Positions 3,388 to 32,041 of a stretch of 47,598 nt of DNA are shown here, one piece after another; within the stretch, counting starts at the first letter, position 1, and every line of letters starts with the position of its first letter. A model generated the notes under the pieces. That model ran no database searches. It was not told where the DNA came from and was given only the letters and a program-made list of their open reading frames with translations. Position numbers and translations under genes: made by a program. This stretch comes from Myxococcales bacterium (GTDB taxonomy: Bacteria > Myxococcota_A > Polyangia > Polyangiales > Polyangiaceae): positions 1 to 47,598 of the forward strand of contig JAAFHV010000040.1 of NCBI GenBank assembly GCA_013297655.1, given 5' to 3'.

Positions 3388-5724
3388 ATGACGGACGCTC
3401 CCCCGATCGACGATCCCTGCCCCCGCATCGCCCTCGATCTGAACATCCCGCTGCCTTCGGTGAAGTCCACCGTCGCGCTGCTCGCGGAGGGGGCCACCGT
3501 GCCCTTCATCGCGCGCTATCGCAAAGAGCAGACGGGCGGCCTCGACGAGGTGCAGATCCGCGACATCGAGGAGAAGCGTGTGTACTACACGGAGCTCTTG
3601 GAGCGCCGTCGCACCGTGATCGCGGAGATCGAGTCGCAGGGCAAGCTCACCCCCGAGCTCCGCAAGAAGATCGACGCGACGTGGGTCAAGTCGGAGCTGG
3701 AAGACCTTTATTTGCCCTTCAAACCGAAGCGTCGCACCCGCGCGACGATGGCGCGCGAGAAGGGGCTCCAGCCGCTCGCGGACATGATCTTGGCGCAAGC
3801 TTCGGGCGATCCGAAGGCGCTCGCGCAGCCCTTCGTGAGCGACGAGAAGGGGGTCGCCGATCTCAAGGCGGCGCTCCAGGGCGCGCGTGACATCGTGGCG
3901 GAGGCGATCGCGGAGCGGGCCGAGGTTCGTCGCACCGTGCGCGAGATTTACCGCAAGGAAGCGGTCGTCGCGTGCGCGCCCATCGCGGAGAAGACGAAGG
4001 CGCCCACGAAGTTCGAGATGTATTACGACTTCCGCGAGAAGCTGGAGGGGCTGCCCTCGCATCGCTACTTGGCCATTCGTCGCGGCGAGGCGGAGGGCGT
4101 GTTGCGCGTCGATCTGGAGGTCGACAAAGAGCGCACCTCGGCGAGCGTGCAAGGCATGGTCGGGGTAAAACCTTCGTCGCCGTTCGCGCCGGAGCTTCGC
4201 GCCGCGGTGGACGACTCGGTCGCGCGCCTCTTGTGCCCGAGCATCGAGAGCGAAGCGCGGATCGACCAGAAAATGCTGGCCGATCGTGACGCGGTCGACA
4301 TTTTCGCGGAGAACCTGAAGAAGCTCCTCCTCGGCGCGCCGCTCGGTCGGCGGGTGGTGCTCGGGATCGATCCGGGGCAGCGCACGGGCTGCAAGTGTGT
4401 CGTCGTGGACGACACCGGGAAGCTCCTCGAGCACACCCTCGTGAACCTCGTGCAAGGCGATCGCGCCCTCGACCACGCCAAGAAGACCATCGCCGCGCTC
4501 GTCGCGAAGTACTCGCCCTTCGCGGTCGCGGTGGGCAACGGAACCCACGGCCGGGAGACGGAAGACTTCGTCCGCAAGGTGCTCGCAGAAGAGAAAAAAG
4601 ACGTGATGGTCGTGCCGGTGAGCGAGTCCGGCGCATCGGTGTATTCTGCAAGCGACGTCGCGCGCGAAGAGTTCCCCGATTTGGATCTCACCGTCCGCGG
4701 CGCGGTGTCGATCGCGCGGCGGCTGCAAGATCCGCTCGCGGAGCTGGTGAAGCTCGATCCGAAGGTGATCGGCGTGGGCCAGTACCAGCACGACGTGTTC
4801 CAGCCGATGCTCAAGCGCAAGCTCGCGGAGGTGATCGAGTCGTGCGTGAACGCGGTCGGGGTGGAGCTCAACACGGCGAGCGCCTCGCTCCTCGAGCACG
4901 TGGCGGGGCTCGGTCCTACCGCGGCGAAGAAGATCGTGAAGCACCGCGAAGAGAAGGGCGCGTTCGCCTCGCGCGCGGAGCTCATGAAGGTTGCCGGCAT
5001 CGGCCCGAAGGCGTTCGAGCAGTGCGCCGGCTTCGTCCGCGTGCGAGGTGGCAAGCACCCTCTCGACGCGAGCGCGGTGCACCCGGAGCGCTACGCTCTC
5101 GTCGAGACGATCGCAAAAGATCAGGGCGTGAAGCTCGCCGATCTTCTGTCCAACGCGGAGCTCGTCGCGCGCATTCCATGGGCAAAATACGCCTCGAACG
5201 ACGTGGGTATGCCCACCTTGGAGGACATCAAGAAGGAGCTCCAGAAGCCCGGCCGCGATCCGCGCGACGCGTTCGAGCCGCCCAAGTTCCGCGACGACGT
5301 ACGCACGATGGAAGATTTGAAAGAGGGAATGGAGCTCGAGGGCGTGGTCACCAACGTGACGGCCTTCGGCGCCTTCGTGGACGTTGGCGTGCACCAAGAC
5401 GGCCTCGTCCACGTGTCGCAGCTCGCCGATCGTTTCGTGAAGGATCCCCACGAGGTCGTGAAGGTGGGCGACAAGGTGAAGGTGCGCGTCGTGGAGGTCG
5501 ATCTGGTGCGGAAGCGGATCGCCCTCACGGCCCGCAGTGGCGCCGCGCCGCAGGGGAATTCGCAGGGTCGGCCCGCGTCAGGCGGCGGCGGGGGCCAGGG
5601 TCGCCCGGGGGGTGGCGCTTCGGATCGCCGCGGTCCACCGCCGCAAGCGCCGAAGGCTCCGGAGGGCCCCAAGTTCGCGAACAACGCCTTCGCGGCCGCG
5701 TTCGGTAAGACGAAAGGAAAGTGA
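3388..5724 (+). CDS. tex: Tex-family RNA-binding transcriptional accessory protein
   Basis: The product has 778 residues, close to the usual 770-780 for Tex. The order is an N-terminal helical Tex domain, a YqgF/RNase H-like domain starting near 322 (VVLGIDPGQRTG), two helix-hairpin-helix motifs around 500-560 (GLGPTAAKKIV and GIGPKAFEQCAG), and an S1 RNA-binding domain around 647-717 (GVVTNVTAFGAFVDVGVHQDG). A Gly/Pro/Gln-rich disordered tail ends in basic residues. Tex proteins bind nucleic acid and affect transcription and RNA turnover. ATG 3388 has an AAGGA sequence about eight bases upstream, which makes it a better start than the TTG at 3370. Confidence 0.95.
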   Translation: MTDAPPIDDPCPRIALDLNIPLPSVKSTVALLAEGATVPFIARYRKEQTGGLDEVQIRDIEEKRVYYTELLERRRTVIAEIESQGKLTPELRKKIDATWVKSELEDLYLPFKPKRRTRATMAREKGLQPLADMILAQASGDPKALAQPFVSDEKGVADLKAALQGARDIVAEAIAERAEVRRTVREIYRKEAVVACAPIAEKTKAPTKFEMYYDFREKLEGLPSHRYLAIRRGEAEGVLRVDLEVDKERTSASVQGMVGVKPSSPFAPELRAAVDDSVARLLCPSIESEARIDQKMLADRDAVDIFAENLKKLLLGAPLGRRVVLGIDPGQRTGCKCVVVDDTGKLLEHTLVNLVQGDRALDHAKKTIAALVAKYSPFAVAVGNGTHGRETEDFVRKVLAEEKKDVMVVPVSESGASVYSASDVAREEFPDLDLTVRGAVSIARRLQDPLAELVKLDPKVIGVGQYQHDVFQPMLKRKLAEVIESCVNAVGVELNTASASLLEHVAGLGPTAAKKIVKHREEKGAFASRAELMKVAGIGPKAFEQCAGFVRVRGGKHPLDASAVHPERYALVETIAKDQGVKLADLLSNAELVARIPWAKYASNDVGMPTLEDIKKELQKPGRDPRDAFEPPKFRDDVRTMEDLKEGMELEGVVTNVTAFGAFVDVGVHQDGLVHVSQLADRFVKDPHEVVKVGDKVKVRVVEVDLVRKRIALTARSGAAPQGNSQGRPASGGGGGQGRPGGGASDRRGPPPQAPKAPEGPKFANNAFAAAFGKTKGK

Positions 5725-7895: not shown

Positions 7896-9230
7896 TCACT
7901 CGAACACGGCGAACAAGACGACGAGCCCCAACACGGTAACTGCTGCGAACACGGCGAGCCCTTGCGCGAAAGGGACCCAGTCGAAGCGCCGCACTTGCAT
8001 ACGCGCACCCGAGGCCGGCGTGGGCATCGACGCGGCGATGCTCGATGCAGACATGGACGCCGAATCCGACGGTGCCGCTACGTCGTGCACGCTCCACGAG
8101 GCTTCCGGGGCCGCGGCCATGATGAGCGTGCGGTTCGGGAGATCGTCGGGCATCGCCATGATGTGGAGCGACGTTGCGTTGGCGTCTTCCGCCGTGGGCG
8201 CTCCGGGGTGCTCTGGTGAGCCTTCCGCGCTCGGCTCGAGGTCGCTCTCGTCGATCGCCTCGATCTCTTCTTCGTCCTCGTCGAAGTCTTGCGCCGCCAT
8301 CGCGGTGGTGCGATCCGAGAGCGCGCTCTTGCCGAGCACGGCGTCGAGCATCGCCCGCGCCGACGGATAACGCGCGGCAGGGGTGCGCTGCATCGCTCGG
8401 AACGCGACGTCGGCGAGGCGCTTCGAGCAGGCCGGACGAACCGCCGTTGCGTGGGGCGCGCTCTCCGAAGGTGACCCCACCGCGGGGAACTTGCCAGTGA
8501 GCATTTCGTAGAGAACGACGCCCATCGAATACACGTCGCTCCGCTTGTCGGCCTTTCCGCCACGCGCCTGCTCTGGCGCCGAGTATCCCGCCCGGCCGAG
8601 GCCCCTCTCGTCGAGCTGCCGCAGCGCTGCGACGCCGAAGTCGGCCACCTTCACCGCCTCCGGCGCGCCCGCGTCCGCGGACACCAAGAGCACGTTTTGG
8701 GGGTCGATGCTGCGGTGGACGAAGCCCTTCGAGTGCGTGACCGCGAGGCCACGAAGCACCTGCGCGACGATCGCCACGATGCGCTCTTCCGCGAGCGCCC
8801 CCGACTCTGCGAGCACGTCGGCGAGCGAGCGGCCCTCCACGTGCTCCATCACCACGTAGAGGGTGCCGTCGGGCTCTTCGCCGGAATCGAGCACCTTCAC
8901 GAACGACGGATGCTCGATGAGCGACGCGGCTTTTGCCTCACGAAGGAAAGCCTCGGAGAACCCAGGACGCCGCGCGAGGGCGGTGTGCACCGACTTCACC
9001 GCGACGCTGCGATCTTGGCTCGCTTGGCGCGCGAGATACGTCGCGCCAATGACCCCCGCGCCGATGAACGAGCGAATCCGATAGCGGCCTCCGACGAGGC
9101 GCCCGAAGAGCGGTTGCTCACGAATCATCGTGCCCGAGACGCTCCGCTCACGCATCGGCGGAGTGGCACTTTCGGGAGTGGCGGACGAAGTCTCTGCAAC
9201 ACTGTTCTTCGCTCGAGGCCGTGAGGTCAT
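7896..9230 (-). CDS. Membrane-anchored Ser/Thr kinase-like protein with altered catalytic loop
   Basis: The 444-residue protein has a bacterial Pkn2-type kinase fold: glycine loop GAGVIG (57-62), VAVK with Lys79, helix-C Glu near 98, DFG at 187-189, SAPEQA of the activation segment, and RSDVYSMGVVLYEMLTGKFP. The catalytic loop reads HRSIDPQN (162-169) instead of HRDLKPEN, so both the catalytic Asp and the following Lys are changed (Ser164, Asp166). It is therefore predicted to be a pseudokinase or a kinase with a rearranged loop. An acidic linker (about 320-360) and a single C-terminal transmembrane helix (FAQGLAVFAAVTVLGLVVLFAVF) follow, so the kinase-like domain is cytosolic and tail-anchored. 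ATG 9230 is the first start; Met26 and Met35 are alternatives. Confidence 0.9.
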   Translation of the reverse strand: MTSRPRAKNSVAETSSATPESATPPMRERSVSGTMIREQPLFGRLVGGRYRIRSFIGAGVIGATYLARQASQDRSVAVKSVHTALARRPGFSEAFLREAKAASLIEHPSFVKVLDSGEEPDGTLYVVMEHVEGRSLADVLAESGALAEERIVAIVAQVLRGLAVTHSKGFVHRSIDPQNVLLVSADAGAPEAVKVADFGVAALRQLDERGLGRAGYSAPEQARGGKADKRSDVYSMGVVLYEMLTGKFPAVGSPSESAPHATAVRPACSKRLADVAFRAMQRTPAARYPSARAMLDAVLGKSALSDRTTAMAAQDFDEDEEEIEAIDESDLEPSAEGSPEHPGAPTAEDANATSLHIMAMPDDLPNRTLIMAAAPEASWSVHDVAAPSDSASMSASSIAASMPTPASGARMQVRRFDWVPFAQGLAVFAAVTVLGLVVLFAVFE

Positions 9231-26078: not shown

Positions 26079-26642
26079 ATGGGGACTGCAAAGAAGGCCG
26101 CGCCCGCGCGGAAGGCGACGTCGATCGCGAAGAAGACCTCGACCATAAAGGCGATCACGAAGAAGGCGGCGCCGAAGGTCGCGCCCGCTAGGAAGCCAAA
26201 GGCGCCGCGTGCGCGGGTGGAGAAGATCACCTTGGCGACCCTCGCCGCCAAGCTCGACACGATCGCGGATCGGCTCTCCACGCTCGAGGCGGTGCTCGGC
26301 GCGGCGCTCGAGGCGCGCGCTCCGGAGGGCCCACCGCGAAGCGCAGCTGGCTCCGCACCGCAGCCGATCGCGAGTGCCGAATTCGACGCCGCGCTCCTCG
26401 CCACGATAGGCGATCTCGACCGCCGCGCGAGGCACGGAGGAATGGTGCCTATCCCAGACGTGCGCGCCGTCTTTCTCGACGCTGGGTGGACGCGGGCAGC
26501 GTTCGACGCGCGCCTCCTGGAGGCGGAGCGTGATTTTCTCGTGGACTTGAAAGTGGCAAACGATCCCCTCCGCCTACCACGCCCGGATCTCGCGATCGAA
26601 GAGCTGGGGCGCGGGCACCTCCAATACGTGGTGATTCGATGA
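26079..26642 (+). CDS. Histone-H1-like-tailed winged-helix protein, first gene of ATPase/nuclease operon
   Basis: The 187-residue protein has three parts. Residues 1-47 are Lys/Ala/Pro-rich (TAKKAAPARKATS, ITKKAAPKVAPARKPK), resembling histone H1 tails and suggesting nonspecific DNA binding. Residues 48-80 are a predicted coiled coil (LATLAAKLDTIADRLSTLEA). Residues 100-187 look like a winged-helix domain: DAALLATIGDLDRRARHGGMVPIPDVRAVF, FDARLLEAERDFLVDLKVANDP, then a strand pair ending LQYVVIR. Its stop overlaps the ATPase start by four bases (ATGA). I infer a DNA-binding or loading subunit of the machine encoded downstream. No clear Shine-Dalgarno sequence precedes ATG 26079. Confidence 0.8.
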   Translation: MGTAKKAAPARKATSIAKKTSTIKAITKKAAPKVAPARKPKAPRARVEKITLATLAAKLDTIADRLSTLEAVLGAALEARAPEGPPRSAAGSAPQPIASAEFDAALLATIGDLDRRARHGGMVPIPDVRAVFLDAGWTRAAFDARLLEAERDFLVDLKVANDPLRLPRPDLAIEELGRGHLQYVVIR

Positions 26643-28882
26643 GCGTCCCGAAGAAGCCTGTCACGAAGTCCGCGCCGGACGGCACTCCCGGCCCGGAAGC
26701 GGCGCGCCTGGAAGAGCTCTTGGCGACCTCGCCGAGCCCGTTCTCGGACTCCGTGCTCCAAAACGCCTTCCACGAGACTCCCGATGTGCCCGAGATCCAC
26801 GCCCGCGCGCGAAAGGCATGCCTCGACCACGTGCGCGCAGCGCGCGAAGAGGGGAAAACTGCGCTCCAAGTGGTGACCGGGGACGCGGGCGACGGCAAGA
26901 CCCACCTCGTCGCGTGGCTGCGGCGGCAATCGGTCGATGGCTTCAGGAAGGGCACCGCGACAGGCCGCTACGCCCTCACCGTGATTCCCCCTTTGCGGTC
27001 GGTGTCGCGCGTGAGCCACCACGTCCTCCAAGAGGTGGTGCGCCAGCTCTCCACGCGGCTTCCAGGCGAGGTTCACGTCGACGACGCGACCGACACGCCG
27101 ATCGAGATCCTCATTTGGCGCGCGCTGCTCGCGATCGCGAAGACCATTCACGACGATCGCACGAGCCACCCCGAGCTGCGAAGTCGGCTCGAGGCGGTGG
27201 TCACGACCAACCCCGACAAGTTCTTGTCGTCGTGTGTGAACCAATTGAAAGAGGCTTGGCGTACCATCGGAGGCGCGTTCGTCGATACGGCGTTGAAGCT
27301 CCCGAGCCTCGATCTCGATCGGGAGGTGTTCCGTGTCGTGGCGCGATTCCCGGACGGCGACGAGCCCGAGCGAACCGCGATCGTCGATTGGCTCGGTGGG
27401 GCGAGCCTGCCGTCCGAGCGCCTCGACGCGCTCGGCACCGCCCTCGTGCTCGACGACGAGGCGGGGGCCACCCGCGGGCTTCACACGCTCCTCGCGCTCG
27501 CGCGTCTCGCGCGGACTCCGATCGCGATCGCCTTCGACCAAATTGAGGGAACACAGAGGCTCGGGGACGACGCGATGTCCGCGTTCCTCGGTACCGTCGC
27601 CGAGCTCTACAACGCGGCGCCCGGCACGGTGTTGCTCGTGTTCTCACAATCGCAGATTTGGCCCGAGCTGAAGAAGAACGCGCCCCAGTTCGTGCAAGAT
27701 CGGCTGAACGACTCGCCGGTGGTCCACTTGCACGGGCTCACCCCCGACGAGGCCCTCGCCCTCGTCGCTACGCGCATGCGGCACTTTTGGGGCAGCATGG
27801 AAAAGGGGCCCGCCGATACCCTCTTTCCGCTCACGAACGAGCGAATCCTCTTCCACGTCAAGCGCGCCAACTTGAGGACGCCGCGCACGGTGGTGCGCTA
27901 TTTCCAGGCGCTCCTGCGCGCGCCAGCAGCCTCCCGTGACTCCTTTGCCGGCCCGCACGAGGTCGCCCCGAAGGAGCTCGTACGGAAGAAGCTCGCCGCG
28001 TTCGTCGAGGAGGCGCGCACCTCGCAACCGCGCGCCGCAGACGCACGCGCCGCGCTCTCGCAGTCGGTCGTCACCGATCTTCTCGTGCAGGCTGCACGCA
28101 CTCGACGCGATGTCGCGGGGGCGAAGGTCGAGGCGGTGCGCTCGAAGCGACTGAGCAAGACCGGAATCTCCGGCGTGGAGCTCGTGGTTCGGCGTGGCGA
28201 TACGAGCAAGCGTGTGTACATCGAGGGATCGAATAGCCAAAATGGCAAATCCGCGGCGTCGACCTTGGCGCGGTTCGCTTCTGTCCTAGAGGCCAATGGC
28301 GCCGACCACGCGGTGCTCCTTCGCGACGCTTCGCTCCCGCTTCCCCCTGCGGCGCGAAAGGCGTTGCTCGAGCTCACCCCGCGCGGCGCTCTGCTCCGGG
28401 TAGAAGAGGGCGAGATCGTCGAGCTCTCCGCGATCGAGGCGCTGCTCAACGCGGCCGCGGCGGGCGACATCGGGCAAAACGTCGACCGCAAGACGGCGCT
28501 CGATCTTGCCGTGGAGTGCGGCATGGCGGCGGCGCTCGGGCTCGAGCAGAAGCTCGTCGAGGTGGTGCTCGCGGGGGAGAGCGCGAACGCGAAAGGCGCG
28601 GAGAAGGCGATCGCCGGCGAGCCCACCGAAGCATCGGCCGACGCCGCGCCGACCTCGCTCGACGCGGTCGCGGTCGCGACGAACGGCGCCGCGATCTTGC
28701 AGCATCTTCGCAACGTGCGCGCGTTCGATCCGGCGGCCCACTTGGCGCGCGCGCTCGGCCTCTCGCTCGAGGCGGTGGACGCTGCGCTTCGTGAACTGGA
28801 GAAGAAGAAGCTCGTCGACGTCGTGAGCGATCGCAACCGCGCTCCCGTGGCGCTCCTTCGGCCGGAGGCCCTGTCCCCATGA
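26639..28882 (+). CDS. AAA-type P-loop ATPase with C-terminal winged-helix region
   Basis: The 747-residue protein has a Walker A motif GDAGDGKT (81-88), a Walker B strand PIAIAFDQIEG (Asp300, with Gln301 where Glu is usual), and a sensor-like strand TVLLVFSQSQ (330-339). The helical region IEILIWRALLAIAKTIHDD resembles large STAND/KAP-like or BREX-type ATPases. Residues 485-600 contain an alpha/beta stretch (GVELVVRRGDTSKRVYIEGSN, then a long helix) that could be a degenerate nuclease-like fold. A winged-helix motif sits near 695-730 (HLARALGLSLEAVDAALRELEKKKLVDVV). It overlaps both neighbours by four bases, which implies one stoichiometric complex. I infer a role as DNA sensor or remodeller. 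Confidence 0.85.
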   Translation: MSVPKKPVTKSAPDGTPGPEAARLEELLATSPSPFSDSVLQNAFHETPDVPEIHARARKACLDHVRAAREEGKTALQVVTGDAGDGKTHLVAWLRRQSVDGFRKGTATGRYALTVIPPLRSVSRVSHHVLQEVVRQLSTRLPGEVHVDDATDTPIEILIWRALLAIAKTIHDDRTSHPELRSRLEAVVTTNPDKFLSSCVNQLKEAWRTIGGAFVDTALKLPSLDLDREVFRVVARFPDGDEPERTAIVDWLGGASLPSERLDALGTALVLDDEAGATRGLHTLLALARLARTPIAIAFDQIEGTQRLGDDAMSAFLGTVAELYNAAPGTVLLVFSQSQIWPELKKNAPQFVQDRLNDSPVVHLHGLTPDEALALVATRMRHFWGSMEKGPADTLFPLTNERILFHVKRANLRTPRTVVRYFQALLRAPAASRDSFAGPHEVAPKELVRKKLAAFVEEARTSQPRAADARAALSQSVVTDLLVQAARTRRDVAGAKVEAVRSKRLSKTGISGVELVVRRGDTSKRVYIEGSNSQNGKSAASTLARFASVLEANGADHAVLLRDASLPLPPAARKALLELTPRGALLRVEEGEIVELSAIEALLNAAAAGDIGQNVDRKTALDLAVECGMAAALGLEQKLVEVVLAGESANAKGAEKAIAGEPTEASADAAPTSLDAVAVATNGAAILQHLRNVRAFDPAAHLARALGLSLEAVDAALRELEKKKLVDVVSDRNRAPVALLRPEALSP

Positions 28883-31134
28883 GCGACTCCTCGTTCTCCG
28901 TCACCGAGGTGGTCACCGCCACCCGCTGCGCGCGTCAGCTCGTGCTCGCGCGAAGAGGCCTGCGGGTCGTGCCCTATGGCGCCGACGCGTTCGGCACTGC
29001 CGCTCACGTCGCGCTCGCCGCGGTCGCGAACGGCGCGCGGACCGATGCCGAGCTTCATGCCCTCCTCGACTACCCGCTCCCCGATCGCGCGCGGGTGATT
29101 CAATCATTGTTTCGTTTGGCGCTCGGGGGGGCTTACGCGCACGCCAAGAAAGTGGCCAATCGCGTCGATGGCGGCGATCTCTCTCGTTTCGCAGACACGG
29201 TGCTTCGCCTCGCGACCCTGCTCGCGCAGCCCCTCACGCGCATGAGCGGCGAGGCGAAGAACGGCAAAGAGGCCGTAGAGTCCGTGTTTTTGGCGTCGGA
29301 AGAAGACGTGACGCTCACCCTGGGGGAGATCACCGTTCGTGGTCGGATCGACCTCATGTGCCGCGACGCCGCCGAGACGTGGCTATGGGACCTGAAGACC
29401 TACGCGGGCACGCACGACGCCGAGCTCGAACAAGTGCGTGTTTATGCGATGGCCTACGCTGCGATGGGCAAACGGGTGCGGCCCGCGCTCTGGCACGTCA
29501 CGCGTGATCGCATCGAGATTCGCAACGCCGACCCGGTGGGCGACGCCGACGTGGCGCAGCTCGGGAAGCTGGTCACGCTGATGCGCAGTTGGGTCGGCGG
29601 CGCACCCCCGCCGCCGGCGCCGGATCTCGGCACCTGTCGCACGTGCCCGGCGCGCAACGAATGCTGGCGCACGTGGGGTCGTACGTTGCCGGACGAGACC
29701 GATCAGGTGCGTCCCCCCACCATGCCGCCGCCCCCGCCAGATGCGCCTCCAGGTGCGCCTCCGGCCGCGCCGCCACCCGCCGAGGCGAAGGTGCCGCACG
29801 TCGTCGCCCCAAAGGTCGCGCTCCCACCGGAGGCACCGACGCGTTCGCCGAGCACGCCGAAGCCCCATGATTTCTCGGTCGAAGGAACGGCGCCGTTGTA
29901 CCTCGGTACCGATCCGAAGAAGCAGCCGGTCACCCTCGACCCGATGGACCTCACCCGCCATGTCGCGGTGTTCGGCGCTTCCGGCTCGGGCAAGACCTAC
30001 TTCGCGAAGTCGATCGTCGAGGAGGCTTTGCTCGCGGGGATTCCCGTCATCGCGTTCGACGTGCAGGGGGATATTTTGCCGCTCGCGGTGACCCGTGACG
30101 ATACCAAGATCGATCCCGCGCTCGAGGCGCGGAGGAACGCTTACCGTGACCGCGCGGAGGTTCGGCTCCTCACGCCGCTCAACGACGCGGGCCTTCGTGT
30201 GGCGATGAACCCCATGAAGCTACCGAAGGGCGACCTCACCCCCGAGCGCCGCTCCATCTGCGCAGAGGCCGCCGCAGACAACCTGCTTTCGTACGCCAAA
30301 ACGGCGCCCGCCACCCGCGAGCACGTGCGCATGTTCTTGGCCAATCGCATCGAAGCCGCGATCGGCAAGACGGCGACGTTGACGATCGCGGATCTCATCG
30401 CCGGGATCGTCGCCGACGAAGAAGAGGACGACGAGCTCCTCGAGCCGAAGGTGCGCGCGAAGCTGGTGAAGGACCTCAAGCTGCTCACCATGGGCACGAA
30501 GAGCTACACGTTTCGGGAAGGTCGCCCGTTCGACCTCGACGATCTCGTGGAGCCGAAGACGCCCGGCAAAGTGCCTCTCAACGTCATTTGGCTCAATGGC
30601 CTCGTCGACCAACAAAGCAAAGAGAGCTTCGTCGCGATGGTCTTGGCCGACGTGTACACCTGGATGCTCGGCCAGCGCGGTGGCAACGCGCGGGTGCTCC
30701 TCTATTTCGACGAGATCGGGCCCTATATGCCGCCGAACGGCGAGCCGCCGACGAAGAAGCTCCTCAAACGTATCTTCAAGGAGGGGCGCAAGTATGGTGT
30801 TTGCGGGCTCTTCTGTACGCAGAACTTCACCGACGTCGATTACAAGGTCGTCTCGCAGGCGAACACGATCGCGGTCGGTCGTGTGAACGCGGCGCAGGAG
30901 AAGAAGAAGGCGATCGAGGCCTTCGGGGCGCCCGCGAACTTCGATGTCGCGGCGGCGGTCACCACGCTCATCGGTGGGGTGCAGGGGCGCTTCTTGCTGA
31001 AACAAGCGTCCGGCAAGGTGGACTGGGTGCAGGGTCGAACACTCCTCACCGAGCACGGGCCGGTGTGGGGCGAAGAGGAGATTCGCGCGGCGACTCCGGA
31101 CGAGACACGCAACGCCTGGAACGAGAAAAAGTAG
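28879..31134 (+). CDS. Fusion of Cas4/AddB-like Fe-S nuclease and HerA-like DNA translocase
   Basis: The 751-residue protein is a two-enzyme fusion. Residues 1-265 form a RecB-family PD-(D/E)XK nuclease with an Fe-S cluster: Cys17 near the N-terminus, Cys253, Cys256 and Cys262 in CRTCPARNEC, His43 of the G-x-x-x-H motif, Asp158 in GRIDLM, Asp171-x-Lys173 in WDLKT, and the QxxxY motif Gln185-Tyr189. A Pro/Ala-rich linker (about 271-325) leads to a HerA/FtsK-type ATPase: Walker A GASGSGKT (366-373), Walker B LLYFDEIGP (Asp611, Glu612), and a CTQNF segment after it. HerA normally forms hexameric rings that feed DNA to a nuclease such as NurA; here the nuclease is covalently attached. The start is ATG 28879, overlapping the previous stop. 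Confidence 0.93.
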   Translation: MSDSSFSVTEVVTATRCARQLVLARRGLRVVPYGADAFGTAAHVALAAVANGARTDAELHALLDYPLPDRARVIQSLFRLALGGAYAHAKKVANRVDGGDLSRFADTVLRLATLLAQPLTRMSGEAKNGKEAVESVFLASEEDVTLTLGEITVRGRIDLMCRDAAETWLWDLKTYAGTHDAELEQVRVYAMAYAAMGKRVRPALWHVTRDRIEIRNADPVGDADVAQLGKLVTLMRSWVGGAPPPPAPDLGTCRTCPARNECWRTWGRTLPDETDQVRPPTMPPPPPDAPPGAPPAAPPPAEAKVPHVVAPKVALPPEAPTRSPSTPKPHDFSVEGTAPLYLGTDPKKQPVTLDPMDLTRHVAVFGASGSGKTYFAKSIVEEALLAGIPVIAFDVQGDILPLAVTRDDTKIDPALEARRNAYRDRAEVRLLTPLNDAGLRVAMNPMKLPKGDLTPERRSICAEAAADNLLSYAKTAPATREHVRMFLANRIEAAIGKTATLTIADLIAGIVADEEEDDELLEPKVRAKLVKDLKLLTMGTKSYTFREGRPFDLDDLVEPKTPGKVPLNVIWLNGLVDQQSKESFVAMVLADVYTWMLGQRGGNARVLLYFDEIGPYMPPNGEPPTKKLLKRIFKEGRKYGVCGLFCTQNFTDVDYKVVSQANTIAVGRVNAAQEKKKAIEAFGAPANFDVAAAVTTLIGGVQGRFLLKQASGKVDWVQGRTLLTEHGPVWGEEEIRAATPDETRNAWNEKK

Positions 31135-31141
31135 GTCATCG

Positions 31142-32041
31142 ATGACGGCGTCGGCGCGAGTAGGGACCATTTTTGCCGAGTTTCGCCTCGAGGTTCTGGT
31201 CGGGGCGGGAGCTTACTCGGCCACGTATGCGGCGAAGCGCTTCGGGGAGGCCGCCGCGATACGTGTACTTTCCCCGGAGGCCGCCGACGATCGGATCGTC
31301 CGCGAAGCGTTCGTGCGCATGCCTTCGCTCGCCGCGGGGATTCGGCACCCCGGAGTCGTGGGTTACGCGGAGGGCGAGCCCGAGACGTACAAGGGCGAGC
31401 TTTATCACCGCATGGAGCTTTGCCTCGGGAATACCCTCACCGACGAGTGGCGCGAAGGTGCCAATCTTCGCCTCGCGGGCGGGGCACGGTCGGCGGCCGA
31501 GGTGGAGCCCACGCTCTCCCTCGAGCGCGCGCTGTTCGTGGCGGAGCGCGTGCTCTCTTGCCTCGCCGCCGCGCACGAGTCGGGTGTAGTCCATGGTCGG
31601 CTCACCCCGGAGAAGCTGCTCGTCGGAGACGAGATCAAGGTGCTCGATTTCGGCCTCGTGCCGTATCGCGGATCGTCGATCTCACCGAGCGAGGCGACGC
31701 CGTACATGGCGCCGGAGGTGGCGATGGGGCTTGTCGACCAGGTCGATTCCCGCGCGGACCTCTTTTCGGTCGCCGCGATCGTGCATGCGCTCGTCACCGG
31801 AAAGACGGTGCACTCCGAGCAGCGCGACTCCGAGTTTGCGGCCGCGATGGCGACTCTTCCTGCGCCGCTCGCGGCGAGCGTGGCGCCTTGGCTACGGGCC
31901 GATGTGTGCGCGTGGCTCGATCGCGCGCTCGCTTGGGATCGCCGAGAGCGCTTCGATACGGCGACCGCGATGCGTGACGGCGCGCTCGAGATCCTCGCTG
32001 CAATCGAGCGAAGGCCGCGCAGCGTTCAGCCGGCCCCGTAG
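31142..32041 (+). CDS. Pseudokinase (Ser/Thr kinase fold, catalytically dead)
   Basis: The 299-residue protein keeps the kinase fold landmarks: a loop GAGAYSATYA (21-30), DFG at 169-171, APE at 190-192, and the SRADLFSVAAIVHALVTGK helix. It has lost catalytic residues. The VAIK lysine is Arg41 (AAIR). HRD is HGR (151-153), the catalytic-loop Lys is Thr155, and the metal-binding Asn is Lys158 (LTPEKLL). No transmembrane segment is present, so it is cytosolic. It lies 7 bp after the nuclease-HerA gene on the same strand and is probably its operon partner, as a scaffold or nucleotide-sensing regulator. Its last 16 bases overlap the convergent glutaredoxin-like gene. Confidence 0.88.
   Translation: MTASARVGTIFAEFRLEVLVGAGAYSATYAAKRFGEAAAIRVLSPEAADDRIVREAFVRMPSLAAGIRHPGVVGYAEGEPETYKGELYHRMELCLGNTLTDEWREGANLRLAGGARSAAEVEPTLSLERALFVAERVLSCLAAAHESGVVHGRLTPEKLLVGDEIKVLDFGLVPYRGSSISPSEATPYMAPEVAMGLVDQVDSRADLFSVAAIVHALVTGKTVHSEQRDSEFAAAMATLPAPLAASVAPWLRADVCAWLDRALAWDRRERFDTATAMRDGALEILAAIERRPRSVQPAP

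What the first reader, a model, noticed from the sequence alone, without database searches (positions are those of the whole stretch)
26079..32041. Candidate undescribed four-gene DNA-processing or defence operon
Four co-directional genes with ATGA overlaps or a 7-bp gap encode an H1-tailed winged-helix protein, an AAA-type ATPase, a Cas4/AddB-like Fe-S nuclease fused to a HerA-like translocase, and a pseudokinase. All motifs are visible. HerA pairs with NurA or SIR2-like effectors in known systems, and pseudokinases or kinases appear in BREX/MADS-type defence. I do not recall this exact combination, so novelty is an inference.
Basis: partly seen in the sequence, partly recalled or inferred. 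Interest (0 to 1): 0.82.

Follow-up and report, generated by a model that had tools for sequence, protein, structure and literature searches.

The report
Likely DNA-shredding anti-invader three-gene operon
Three neighbouring genes in a bacterium appear to build a machine that grips DNA, pumps it through a ring motor and cuts it, probably to destroy invading DNA; it is a new variant of a class that was predicted from genomes in 2024, and a fourth gene beside it is probably just a neighbour.

Summary
The four ORFs are real and at the stated coordinates. Three (A-B-C, 26079-31134) form a recurring cassette; the fourth (D, pseudokinase) does not belong to it. B has an Orc1/Cdc6-like AAA+ core (AlphaFold pLDDT 89; best match Cdc6, VIA Z 16.7), a REase-like domain without a conserved catalytic lysine, and a winged helix. 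A is a Lys/Ala-rich tail, a helix and a winged helix. C is a four-cysteine PD-(D/E)XK nuclease fused to a HerA motor. Of 49 surveyed loci with B, 33 have A, B and a nuclease-motor gene in order (some cut by contig ends); the motor is HerA, FtsK or coupling-protein-like, and one locus fuses B and C. B matches (all forms) are patchy: 39 of 98 family genomes. Cassettes share no flanking gene in 11 of 12 informative congeneric pairs, unlike one control gene. This is the grammar of the 'HerA/FtsK capture systems' (Orc/CDC6 branch) that PMC10853773 predicts to be anti-invader systems: a new variant of a known kind. Likely function: recognise, pump and cut foreign DNA. Nothing was tested at the bench, no defence-island signal was seen, and forms with only A and B keep stable sites.

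The parts
26079..26642 (+). gene A, 187 aa: Lys/Ala/Pro-rich, probably disordered tail (res 1-50), helix (52-79), winged helix (99-186)
   Evidence: C-terminal domain profile hit 1e-38 (the profile includes this protein)
26639..28882 (+). gene B, 747 aa: Orc1/Cdc6-like AAA+ ATPase with REase-like middle domain and C-terminal winged helix; 4-bp overlap with A
26786..27928 (+). B residues ~50-430: AAA+ core (Walker A at 81-88, Walker B DQIE at 300-303)
   Evidence: AlphaFold model and fold matches to Cdc6/ORC; Walker residues in 34 of 34 aligned B proteins
28037..28459 (+). B residues ~467-607: helix-three strands-helix-strand domain, REase-like, no conserved catalytic Lys (putative inactive REase)
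   Evidence: DSSP of model; Mrr_cat E 0.012 at 502-561; motif table. Not folded or searched alone
28658..28858 (+). B residues ~674-740: C-terminal winged helix
28879..31134 (+). gene C, 751 aa: four-Cys PD-(D/E)XK nuclease fused to HerA motor; 4-bp overlap with B
28879..29697 (+). C nuclease half (Cys17, Asp158, Asp171-x-Lys173, Gln185..Tyr189, Cys253/256/262)
29890..31122 (+). C HerA motor half (Walker A 366-373, DE 611-612, sensor Gln 648)
31142..32041 (+). gene D, 299 aa pseudokinase 7 bp downstream; adjacent but not a recurring member of the cassette

Best explanation
A-B-C is a compact anti-invader (restriction-like) machine of the HerA/FtsK-capture type. Proposed steps: (1) inferred: A (tail plus winged helix) and B (Orc/Cdc6-like AAA+ with C-terminal winged helix) assemble on DNA with ATP, as Orc/Cdc6 proteins do, and mark an invading replicon or a DNA structure; A changes fastest and is the likely specificity subunit. 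(2) inferred: B recruits or loads C, a HerA ring (hexamer known for HerA proteins, not tested here). (3) inferred from motifs: C pumps double-stranded DNA and its N-terminal Fe-S RecB-like nuclease cuts the strands as they pass. Shown here: the domains, the recurring gene order, the B-C fusion in one relative, conservation of catalytic and Cys residues, patchiness, lack of shared flanks, and different motors in different relatives. D is a local neighbour or at most a local accessory.
For: Domains: ORC/Cdc6 chains lead, prob 1.00, best E 5e-4; 1fnn_A Cdc6 Z 16.7, rmsd 3.3, 246 aligned; C profile matches solved HerA proteins, e.g. 8xau E 1.5e-12, and DptH 7es4 E 7.9e-5. Linkage: 49 B-bearing loci: 33 with A, B and nuclease-motor gene in order (in L062 the contig ends before the motor), 9 A-B only, 1 cut by a contig end, 4 B-HerA fusions, 2 B alone; L106 encodes B, nuclease and FtsK motor in one ORF. 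Active sites: four Cys in 23 of 23 aligned C proteins (of 27 four-Cys-type loci), D..[D/E]xK and Q...Y in 22 of 23; ExK in 5 of 5 aligned Cys-less forms (of 6). Distribution of B matches: 39 of 98 family genomes, 13 of 96 in a class sample, 5 of 95 in a phylum sample with 0 of 75 outside the class. Site: no shared flanking gene in 11 of 12 informative congeneric pairs, against 2-11 shared in all 15 pairs around one control gene. In one genus A is 67-76% identical in the three full-length pairs, B 89-91%. SIR2_2 protein directly downstream in L080 (E 1.1e-24) and, 89% identical, in L081.
Against: No activity or phage phenotype is known. No defence-island signal: of 103 flanking proteins the commonest Pfam family is Pkinase (6), most of the 25 families shown of 105 occur once. 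B has no match in the phage, viral and plasmid searches, only fused B-HerA relatives on two replicons of the plasmid set. G+C is that of the surroundings. G015 has lost the nuclease residues but keeps the operon. L080 and L081 keep the cassette at the same site, and the A-B-only forms L088/L089 and L113-L115 share flanking genes, so these are stably inherited and the A-B pair may have another job. One control gene only; the pairs are not independent. L098 lies next to SbcD/SbcC-like genes, which fits DNA-end processing too. In the fold comparison TnsC (Z 15.3) and other AAA+ proteins (12.6-14.6) are not far below Cdc6.
Confidence: 0.6

Rival explanations
1. A host DNA double-strand-break end-resection unit, a bacterial counterpart of archaeal HerA-NurA(-Mre11-Rad50): B loads the nuclease-motor at broken ends and C resects.
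For: C joins a RecB/AddB-type nuclease to HerA, the two activities of HerA-NurA; in L098 the cassette is followed by a Metallophos (E 6.6e-13) SbcD-like gene and a gene that reads as SbcC (by eye), and similar genes lie near the fused-type locus L032 (by eye). A-B-only forms keep stable sites.
Against: B matches are patchy within the family (39 of 98) and absent from 75 of 75 sampled genomes outside the class, unlike a housekeeping repair unit; most cassettes share no flanks; A diverges quickly; nuclease residues are lost in G015.
Confidence: 0.17
2. Part of the transfer or maintenance machinery of an integrated mobile element, with an Orc/Cdc6-like initiator and a DNA pump, rather than a defence system.
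For: Orc/Cdc6-like ATPase plus HerA, FtsK or coupling-protein-like motor; different sites within genera; fused relatives lie on replicons of the plasmid set.
Against: The nuclease is fused to the motor and its catalytic residues are kept in 22 of 23; no integrase, relaxase or replication gene was recognised by eye among the called genes of the window, and none is among the 25 commonest of 105 Pfam families of the flanks (the rest not shown); no match in phage or viral sets.
Confidence: 0.12
3. A true four-gene defence operon in which the pseudokinase D is a sensor or regulator.
For: D is co-directional, 7 bp downstream, and resembles kinases of defence families (PADLOC PD-T4-6 E 4.9e-39, mad6 E 1.5e-24); pseudokinases are reported in PglW and some DndF (PMC12839542, passage). 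Kinase-fold genes do lie close in a few relatives: 205 bp after C in L096 and about 70 bp after B in the A-B-only locus L107.
Against: No relative of D in the five other loci of the window's B clade; of 27 other complete loci given to the script, 24 have a called next gene and 1 of these (L096) is a kinase; kinases are very common in this genome and another lies at 7896-9155 of the window. PADLOC PD-T4-6 models match 6 of 103 flanking proteins, as many as Pfam Pkinase does, so they are not specific.
Confidence: 0.1

Closest known systems
HerA/FtsK capture systems, Orc/CDC6 branch (PMC10853773, NAR 2024; sections 22 and 26 read, other passages by term)
   Same: Orc/Cdc6-family AAA+ ATPase with a REase-like domain before a C-terminal wHTH, separate wHTH protein, nuclease, HerA or FtsK motor from different sources, patchy distribution
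   Different: The nuclease is a four-Cys PDDEXK_1/RecB-Cas4-like domain fused to the motor; the section names two REase families (one shared with AbiJ) and a 3'-5' exonuclease fusion. Term searches of the main text found no RecB, myxo, Cas4, AddB, Fe-S or Sorangium. Figures and supplement not seen
BREX-related capture (BRC) systems (PMC12839542, NAR 2026; section 36 read)
   Same: ORC/Cdc6 ATPase with HerA/FtsK translocase and a fast-changing wHTH protein
   Different: BRC is defined by PglZ, DUF6079, STAND NTPase, DUF4007 and in part GNAT/TGT; none of these was matched by the four proteins, B having only a sub-threshold BrxC_BrxD match
HerA-NurA end-resection complex
   Same: HerA motor plus nuclease
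   Different: Nuclease here is PD-(D/E)XK with four Cys and fused in cis; NurA is a separate RNase H-like nuclease (recalled)
DndFGH / DptFGH
   Same: HerA-type motor and REase in one protein (DndH model E 5.2e-9 on C); solved DptH matches the C profile
   Different: DndH averages 1700 aa with eight domains and DndF holds a nucleotide kinase (PMC10853773); C is 751 aa and B is Orc/Cdc6-like
HerA-SIR2 / HerA-DUF4297 and MADS (mad8, mad6)
   Same: HerA-family motor in anti-phage systems (names recalled and from listings); mad8 and mad6 models match C and D
   Different: No SIR2, DUF4297 or methylase match in the four window proteins; D does not recur

Membership tests
HerA/FtsK capture system, Orc/CDC6 branch | AAA+ ATPase of the Orc/CDC6 family (which the paper takes to include transposase ATPases and STAND) | tested here: met
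   Foldseek: ORC/Cdc6 chains lead, prob 1.00, best E 5e-4; VIA Z 16.7 to Cdc6 1fnn_A, 3.3 A over 246 residues; TnsC reaches 15.3, so the exact branch within the family is open
HerA/FtsK capture system, Orc/CDC6 branch | inactive REase domain between AAA+ core and C-terminal wHTH | tested here: inconclusive
   Position and secondary-structure order fit, weak Mrr_cat match E 0.012, no conserved catalytic Lys; the domain was not folded or searched alone
HerA/FtsK capture system, Orc/CDC6 branch | HerA or FtsK motor in the same operon | tested here: met
HerA/FtsK capture system, Orc/CDC6 branch | active nuclease | tested here: inconclusive
   Active-site residues kept in 22 of 23 aligned C proteins, activity not measured; whether it is one of the paper's two REase families could not be checked
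[quoted passage not shown]
   A has one predicted wHTH in the window; G015/G016 forms have an HTH-like N-terminus instead of the tail (by eye); relation to DndG not tested
HerA/FtsK capture system, Orc/CDC6 branch | mobile or patchy distribution | tested here: met
   but A-B-only forms and L080/L081 keep their sites
HerA-NurA | NurA nuclease as partner of HerA | tested here: not met
   No NurA model among Pfam or NCBIfam matches of the four proteins at E up to 1; nuclease is PDDEXK_1
BREX / BRC | PglZ and partner components | tested here: not met
   No PglZ, PglX/BrxX, BrxL or DUF4007 among the matches listed for the four proteins (for D PADLOC showed 25 of 28); only sub-threshold BrxC_BrxD on B and the kinase part of PglW on D
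DndFGH | DndF nucleotide kinase and ~1700-aa DndH | tested here: not met
   B is ORC-like (DndF model only E 0.0012 over 36 residues); C is 751 aa and the DndH model matches it in the motor region
active Ser/Thr protein kinase (D) | catalytic Asp (HRD) and VAIK Lys | tested here: not met
   HGR and Arg in D (alignment): kinase fold, predicted inactive

The most novel reading that the evidence does not exclude
A previously undescribed clade of anti-invader systems, centred on one bacterial class, in which one recognition pair (A, Orc/Cdc6-like B) and a RecB-like nuclease are combined with different DNA pumps (HerA, FtsK or coupling-protein-like). Because such pumps are the ones invaders use for packaging, segregation and conjugation, the change of motor could retarget the system to DNA in transit; the H1-like tail of A would hold the complex on DNA.
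Probability: 0.35. Interest if true: 0.72.

Novelty: new variant of a known kind. Interest (0 to 1): 0.5.

Why it matters
HerA/FtsK capture systems were predicted from genome comparison; in the passages read (PMC10853773) their function is proposed, not measured. This cassette is small (three genes, one carrying both nuclease and motor), has natural variants that differ in the motor, a natural active-site loss and a natural B-C fusion. It is a good minimal system on which to test whether an Orc/Cdc6-like loader directs a nuclease-pump to foreign DNA.

Tried and rejected
Four-gene unit with D: rejected. Kinase enrichment near the cassette: 12 of 467 proteins called in the surveyed loci (core proteins and loci without B included) against 2 of 132 around the control, no clear excess. 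Defence-island context: a script selected 121 flanking proteins of 80-1400 aa from 28 loci; I sent 98 of these (23 left out by hand, all of L081's as near-copies of L080's and others unsystematically) plus 5 from the window. PADLOC at E 1e-10 matched 174 families, of which the 25 shown are all kinase or kinase-system models, so this says little. Phage/viral/plasmid origin: nothing for B; for C three motor-only matches in the plasmid set (the Nonomuraea one was not looked at) and none in phages or viral contigs; the viral scans look for short peptide patterns and can miss relatives. The genome-contig scan with C found two motor relatives, without B by profile. Independent capture of HerA by two B clades: on the B tree (34 of the 49 B proteins) the HerA cassettes form two groups (2 changes, forced by starred branches), but the HerA motors of both form one supported clade (97/96), so separate captures are not shown; loss or replacement of C in between, or reassortment of whole C, fits as well, and the deepest B branch is only 93/87. 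Promoters and terminators: no excess over shuffles. Foreign base composition: none. One search has 15 cassette pairs; three with L062, whose contig holds no flanking gene, were dropped before the count of 12. Solved-structure search by B sequence profile gave P-loop and wHTH generalities. Literature: seven answered searches; beyond PMC10853773 and PMC12839542 (passages and named sections) and PMC7159879 (passages) only listings with starts of abstracts were seen. The 2004 FtsK-HerA review is not held.
Full report
What was claimed and what is there. The four ORFs exist as described: A 26079-26642, B 26639-28882, C 28879-31134, D 31142-32041, all on the + strand, with 4-bp overlaps A/B and B/C and a 7-bp gap C/D. 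Pfam gives C a PDDEXK_1 nuclease (E 2.9e-13) and a HerA central domain (E 1.3e-14), D a protein-kinase fold (E 8.7e-17), B only sub-threshold AAA and HTH matches, and A nothing. C carries Cys17, Cys253, Cys256, Cys262, Asp171-x-Lys173 and Gln185...Tyr189, the pattern of RecB/AddB/Cas4-type Fe-S nucleases (pattern recalled; a PADLOC Cas4 model matches at 7.1e-8). D reads HGR for HRD and Arg for the VAIK lysine, so it is a predicted pseudokinase.

Structure of B and A. AlphaFold with 34 natural relatives gives B a mean pLDDT of 89. Foldseek ranks ORC and Cdc6 proteins at the top with probability 1.00 but modest E-values (best 5e-4); BrxC and RdrA chains are also in the list. VIA-align gives Cdc6 of Pyrobaculum Z 16.7, 3.3 A over 246 residues, then many ORC chains; TnsC reaches 15.3 and unrelated AAA+ rows about 12.6-12.9. 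After the AAA+ core the model has helix, three strands, helix, strand, helix, strand, helix (467-607), the order of a restriction-endonuclease fold, then a winged helix (674-740). The Walker A residues and a Walker B 'DQ' are kept in 34 of 34 aligned B proteins, and no catalytic lysine is conserved in the REase-like part. That part was not folded or searched alone, so 'inactive REase' rests on order, position and a weak Mrr_cat match (E 0.012). A (mean pLDDT 77) is a low-confidence Lys/Ala/Pro-rich stretch, a long helix and a well-predicted winged helix; its matches in the PDB are ordinary wHTH proteins, none with E under 0.001. In the G015 and G016 relatives an HTH-like N-terminus stands where the window has the tail (by eye).

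Co-occurrence. tblastn finds A, B and C in order in three other genera of the same family, without D. A profile of B (7 sequences) matched 39 of 98 genomes of the family, 13 of 96 in a class sample and 5 of 95 in a phylum sample, where 0 of the 75 genomes outside the class matched, all at E up to 1e-10. These counts include partial and fused forms, the samples overlap, and only the best 11-12 first-look candidates per genome were scored. I fetched neighbourhoods of many of the best matches and searched 54 sources, the window included, in six frames with profiles. B is found in 49; it is not found in L004, L005, L015, L030 and L031. Of the 49, 33 have A, B and a nuclease-motor gene in order: 13 of the nuclease-HerA kind, 1 nuclease-coupling-protein-like (L112), 13 nuclease-FtsK, and 6 with a Cys-less nuclease and FtsK; nine have A-B only; one (L101) is cut by the contig end; four have B fused to HerA (L032, L033, L102, L103); two have B alone (L117, L118). 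Some of the 33 are cut or broken: the contig ends before the motor in L062 and within it in L097 and L108; in L083 the two halves of C lie in different frames; in L086 B is shortened. The profiles were built partly from the same loci, so the counts describe arrangement, not independent discovery. In L106 B, nuclease and FtsK lie in one ORF, which is direct evidence that B and C work together.

Catalytic residues. 23 C proteins of the 27 four-Cys-type loci were aligned: all four Cys are kept in 23, the D..[D/E]xK and Q...Y residues in 22; G015 has lost them. The five Cys-less forms aligned (of six) keep ExK (by eye). FtsK has Pfam E-values of 7.7e-28 to 1.5e-35 in the three examples scanned, and the motor of G201 matches the coupling-protein model TrwB_AAD_bind best (1.3e-8).

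Site test. For three genera I compared genes flanking the cassette in congeneric genomes with genes flanking one long conserved window gene (3388-5724, Tex by recall). Cassette flanks shared no gene at over 50% identity in 11 of 12 informative pairs and four genes in the twelfth (L080-L081); the control's flanks shared 2 to 11 genes in all 15 pairs. In genus g20 B is 89-91% and the control 89-94% identical; A is 67-76% in the three full-length pairs (80-93% over the short C-terminal piece of the cut L062 copy; the start of A in L083 is uncertain). So the cassette has been inherited within the genus but sits at different places, as expected of defence and mobile modules. Against this: the A-B-only forms L088/L089 and L113-L115 do share flanking genes. 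One control gene is a thin control.

Trees. On the B tree the window groups with L025, L080 and L081 (100/99), then with L026 and L027 (100/99). HerA-bearing cassettes fall in two groups and need two changes; forms without C are nested among those with C. The HerA motors nevertheless form one clade apart from the other HerA domains sampled (97/96). C or its motor has therefore been lost or exchanged, but repeated independent capture of HerA is not shown.

The fourth gene. No relative of D was found in the five other loci of the window's B clade. Kinase-fold genes are 12 of 467 proteins called in the surveyed loci and 2 of 132 around the control. Of 27 other complete loci given to the script, 24 have a called gene after C, and in one (L096, 205 bp away) it is a kinase-fold gene; the A-B-only locus L107 has a kinase about 70 bp after B. 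The host genome has at least 150 kinase matches (150 of 261 candidates were scored). D is best seen as a neighbour, although the 7-bp gap makes co-transcription likely.

Context. The window around the cassette holds what read as ordinary chromosomal genes (by eye), and its G+C does not differ. Among 103 flanking proteins of other loci and the window the commonest family is Pkinase (6); N6_Mtase, SNF2, Exonuclease VII and D12 methylase families occur once each among the 25 of 105 families shown, so no defence-island signal was seen, on a partial list. L080 carries a SIR2_2 protein 290 bp downstream and L081 one that is 89% identical, 119 bp downstream; L098 carries a Metallophos protein that reads as SbcD, followed by a gene that reads as SbcC. 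Fused B-HerA relatives occur in a Methylobacterium and a Tsukamurella replicon of the plasmid set. No match was found in phages or viral contigs.

Comparison with what is known. PMC10853773 (sections 22 and 26 read in full) describes neighbourhoods that combine an Orc/CDC6 AAA+ ATPase, an inactive REase inserted between the AAA+ core and the C-terminal wHTH, an active REase, HerA or FtsK motors from different sources and sometimes a fast-evolving multi-wHTH protein, and proposes that they intercept invading DNA. Of six features tested the cassette meets three (ATPase family, motor, patchy distribution) and three are inconclusive (inactive REase fold, nuclease activity and family, multi-wHTH protein); none is contradicted. 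PMC12839542 (section 36 read) adds BRC systems, whose defining partners are not among the four proteins. Term searches of PMC10853773 found no RecB, myxo, Cas4, AddB, Fe-S or Sorangium, and no other paper on this combination was noticed in the listings of seven searches; figures and supplements were not seen. The verdict is a new variant of a known, computationally predicted kind.

Taxonomy note. That this is a myxobacterium of the Polyangiales type is my inference from the genome sizes (up to 16 Mb in the family) and the number of kinases.

Noticed in passing
L106 5730-9671: B, a Cys-less PD-(D/E)XK nuclease and an FtsK motor in a single open frame of 1,314 aa, beside an A-type gene: a one-piece version of the system.
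   Followed up: partly
L080 180-3485 and L081 256-3729: SIR2_2-domain protein (scanned in L080) directly downstream of the cassette in two relatives of the window; possibly a second effector.
   Followed up: partly
L098 9339-13495: A Metallophos protein that reads as SbcD and a gene that reads as SbcC directly after an A-B-nuclease-FtsK cassette.
   Followed up: partly
L027 4111-6261: The nuclease half keeps its four Cys but has lost the catalytic D..DxK and the Gln, while A, B and the HerA Walker motifs remain.
   Followed up: yes
L088, L089, L113, L114, L115, L116: A-B pairs without any nuclease-motor gene, with shared flanks in L088/L089 and in L113-L115 (stable sites): the recognition pair may have a job of its own.
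   Followed up: partly
window 7896-9155, - strand: Second kinase-fold gene in the window whose catalytic loop also departs from HRD (reads HRS).
   Followed up: no
L131 1274-6242: DUF559 protein, small hypothetical protein and B-HerA fusion between ribosomal-protein genes in Tsukamurella; a gene that reads as DUF559-like also precedes the fused type in L033.
   Followed up: partly
L112 1205-3370: A 722-aa SEC-C-like protein gene overlaps the end of the nuclease-motor gene by 4 bp in G201, the one locus with a coupling-protein-like motor.
   Followed up: no
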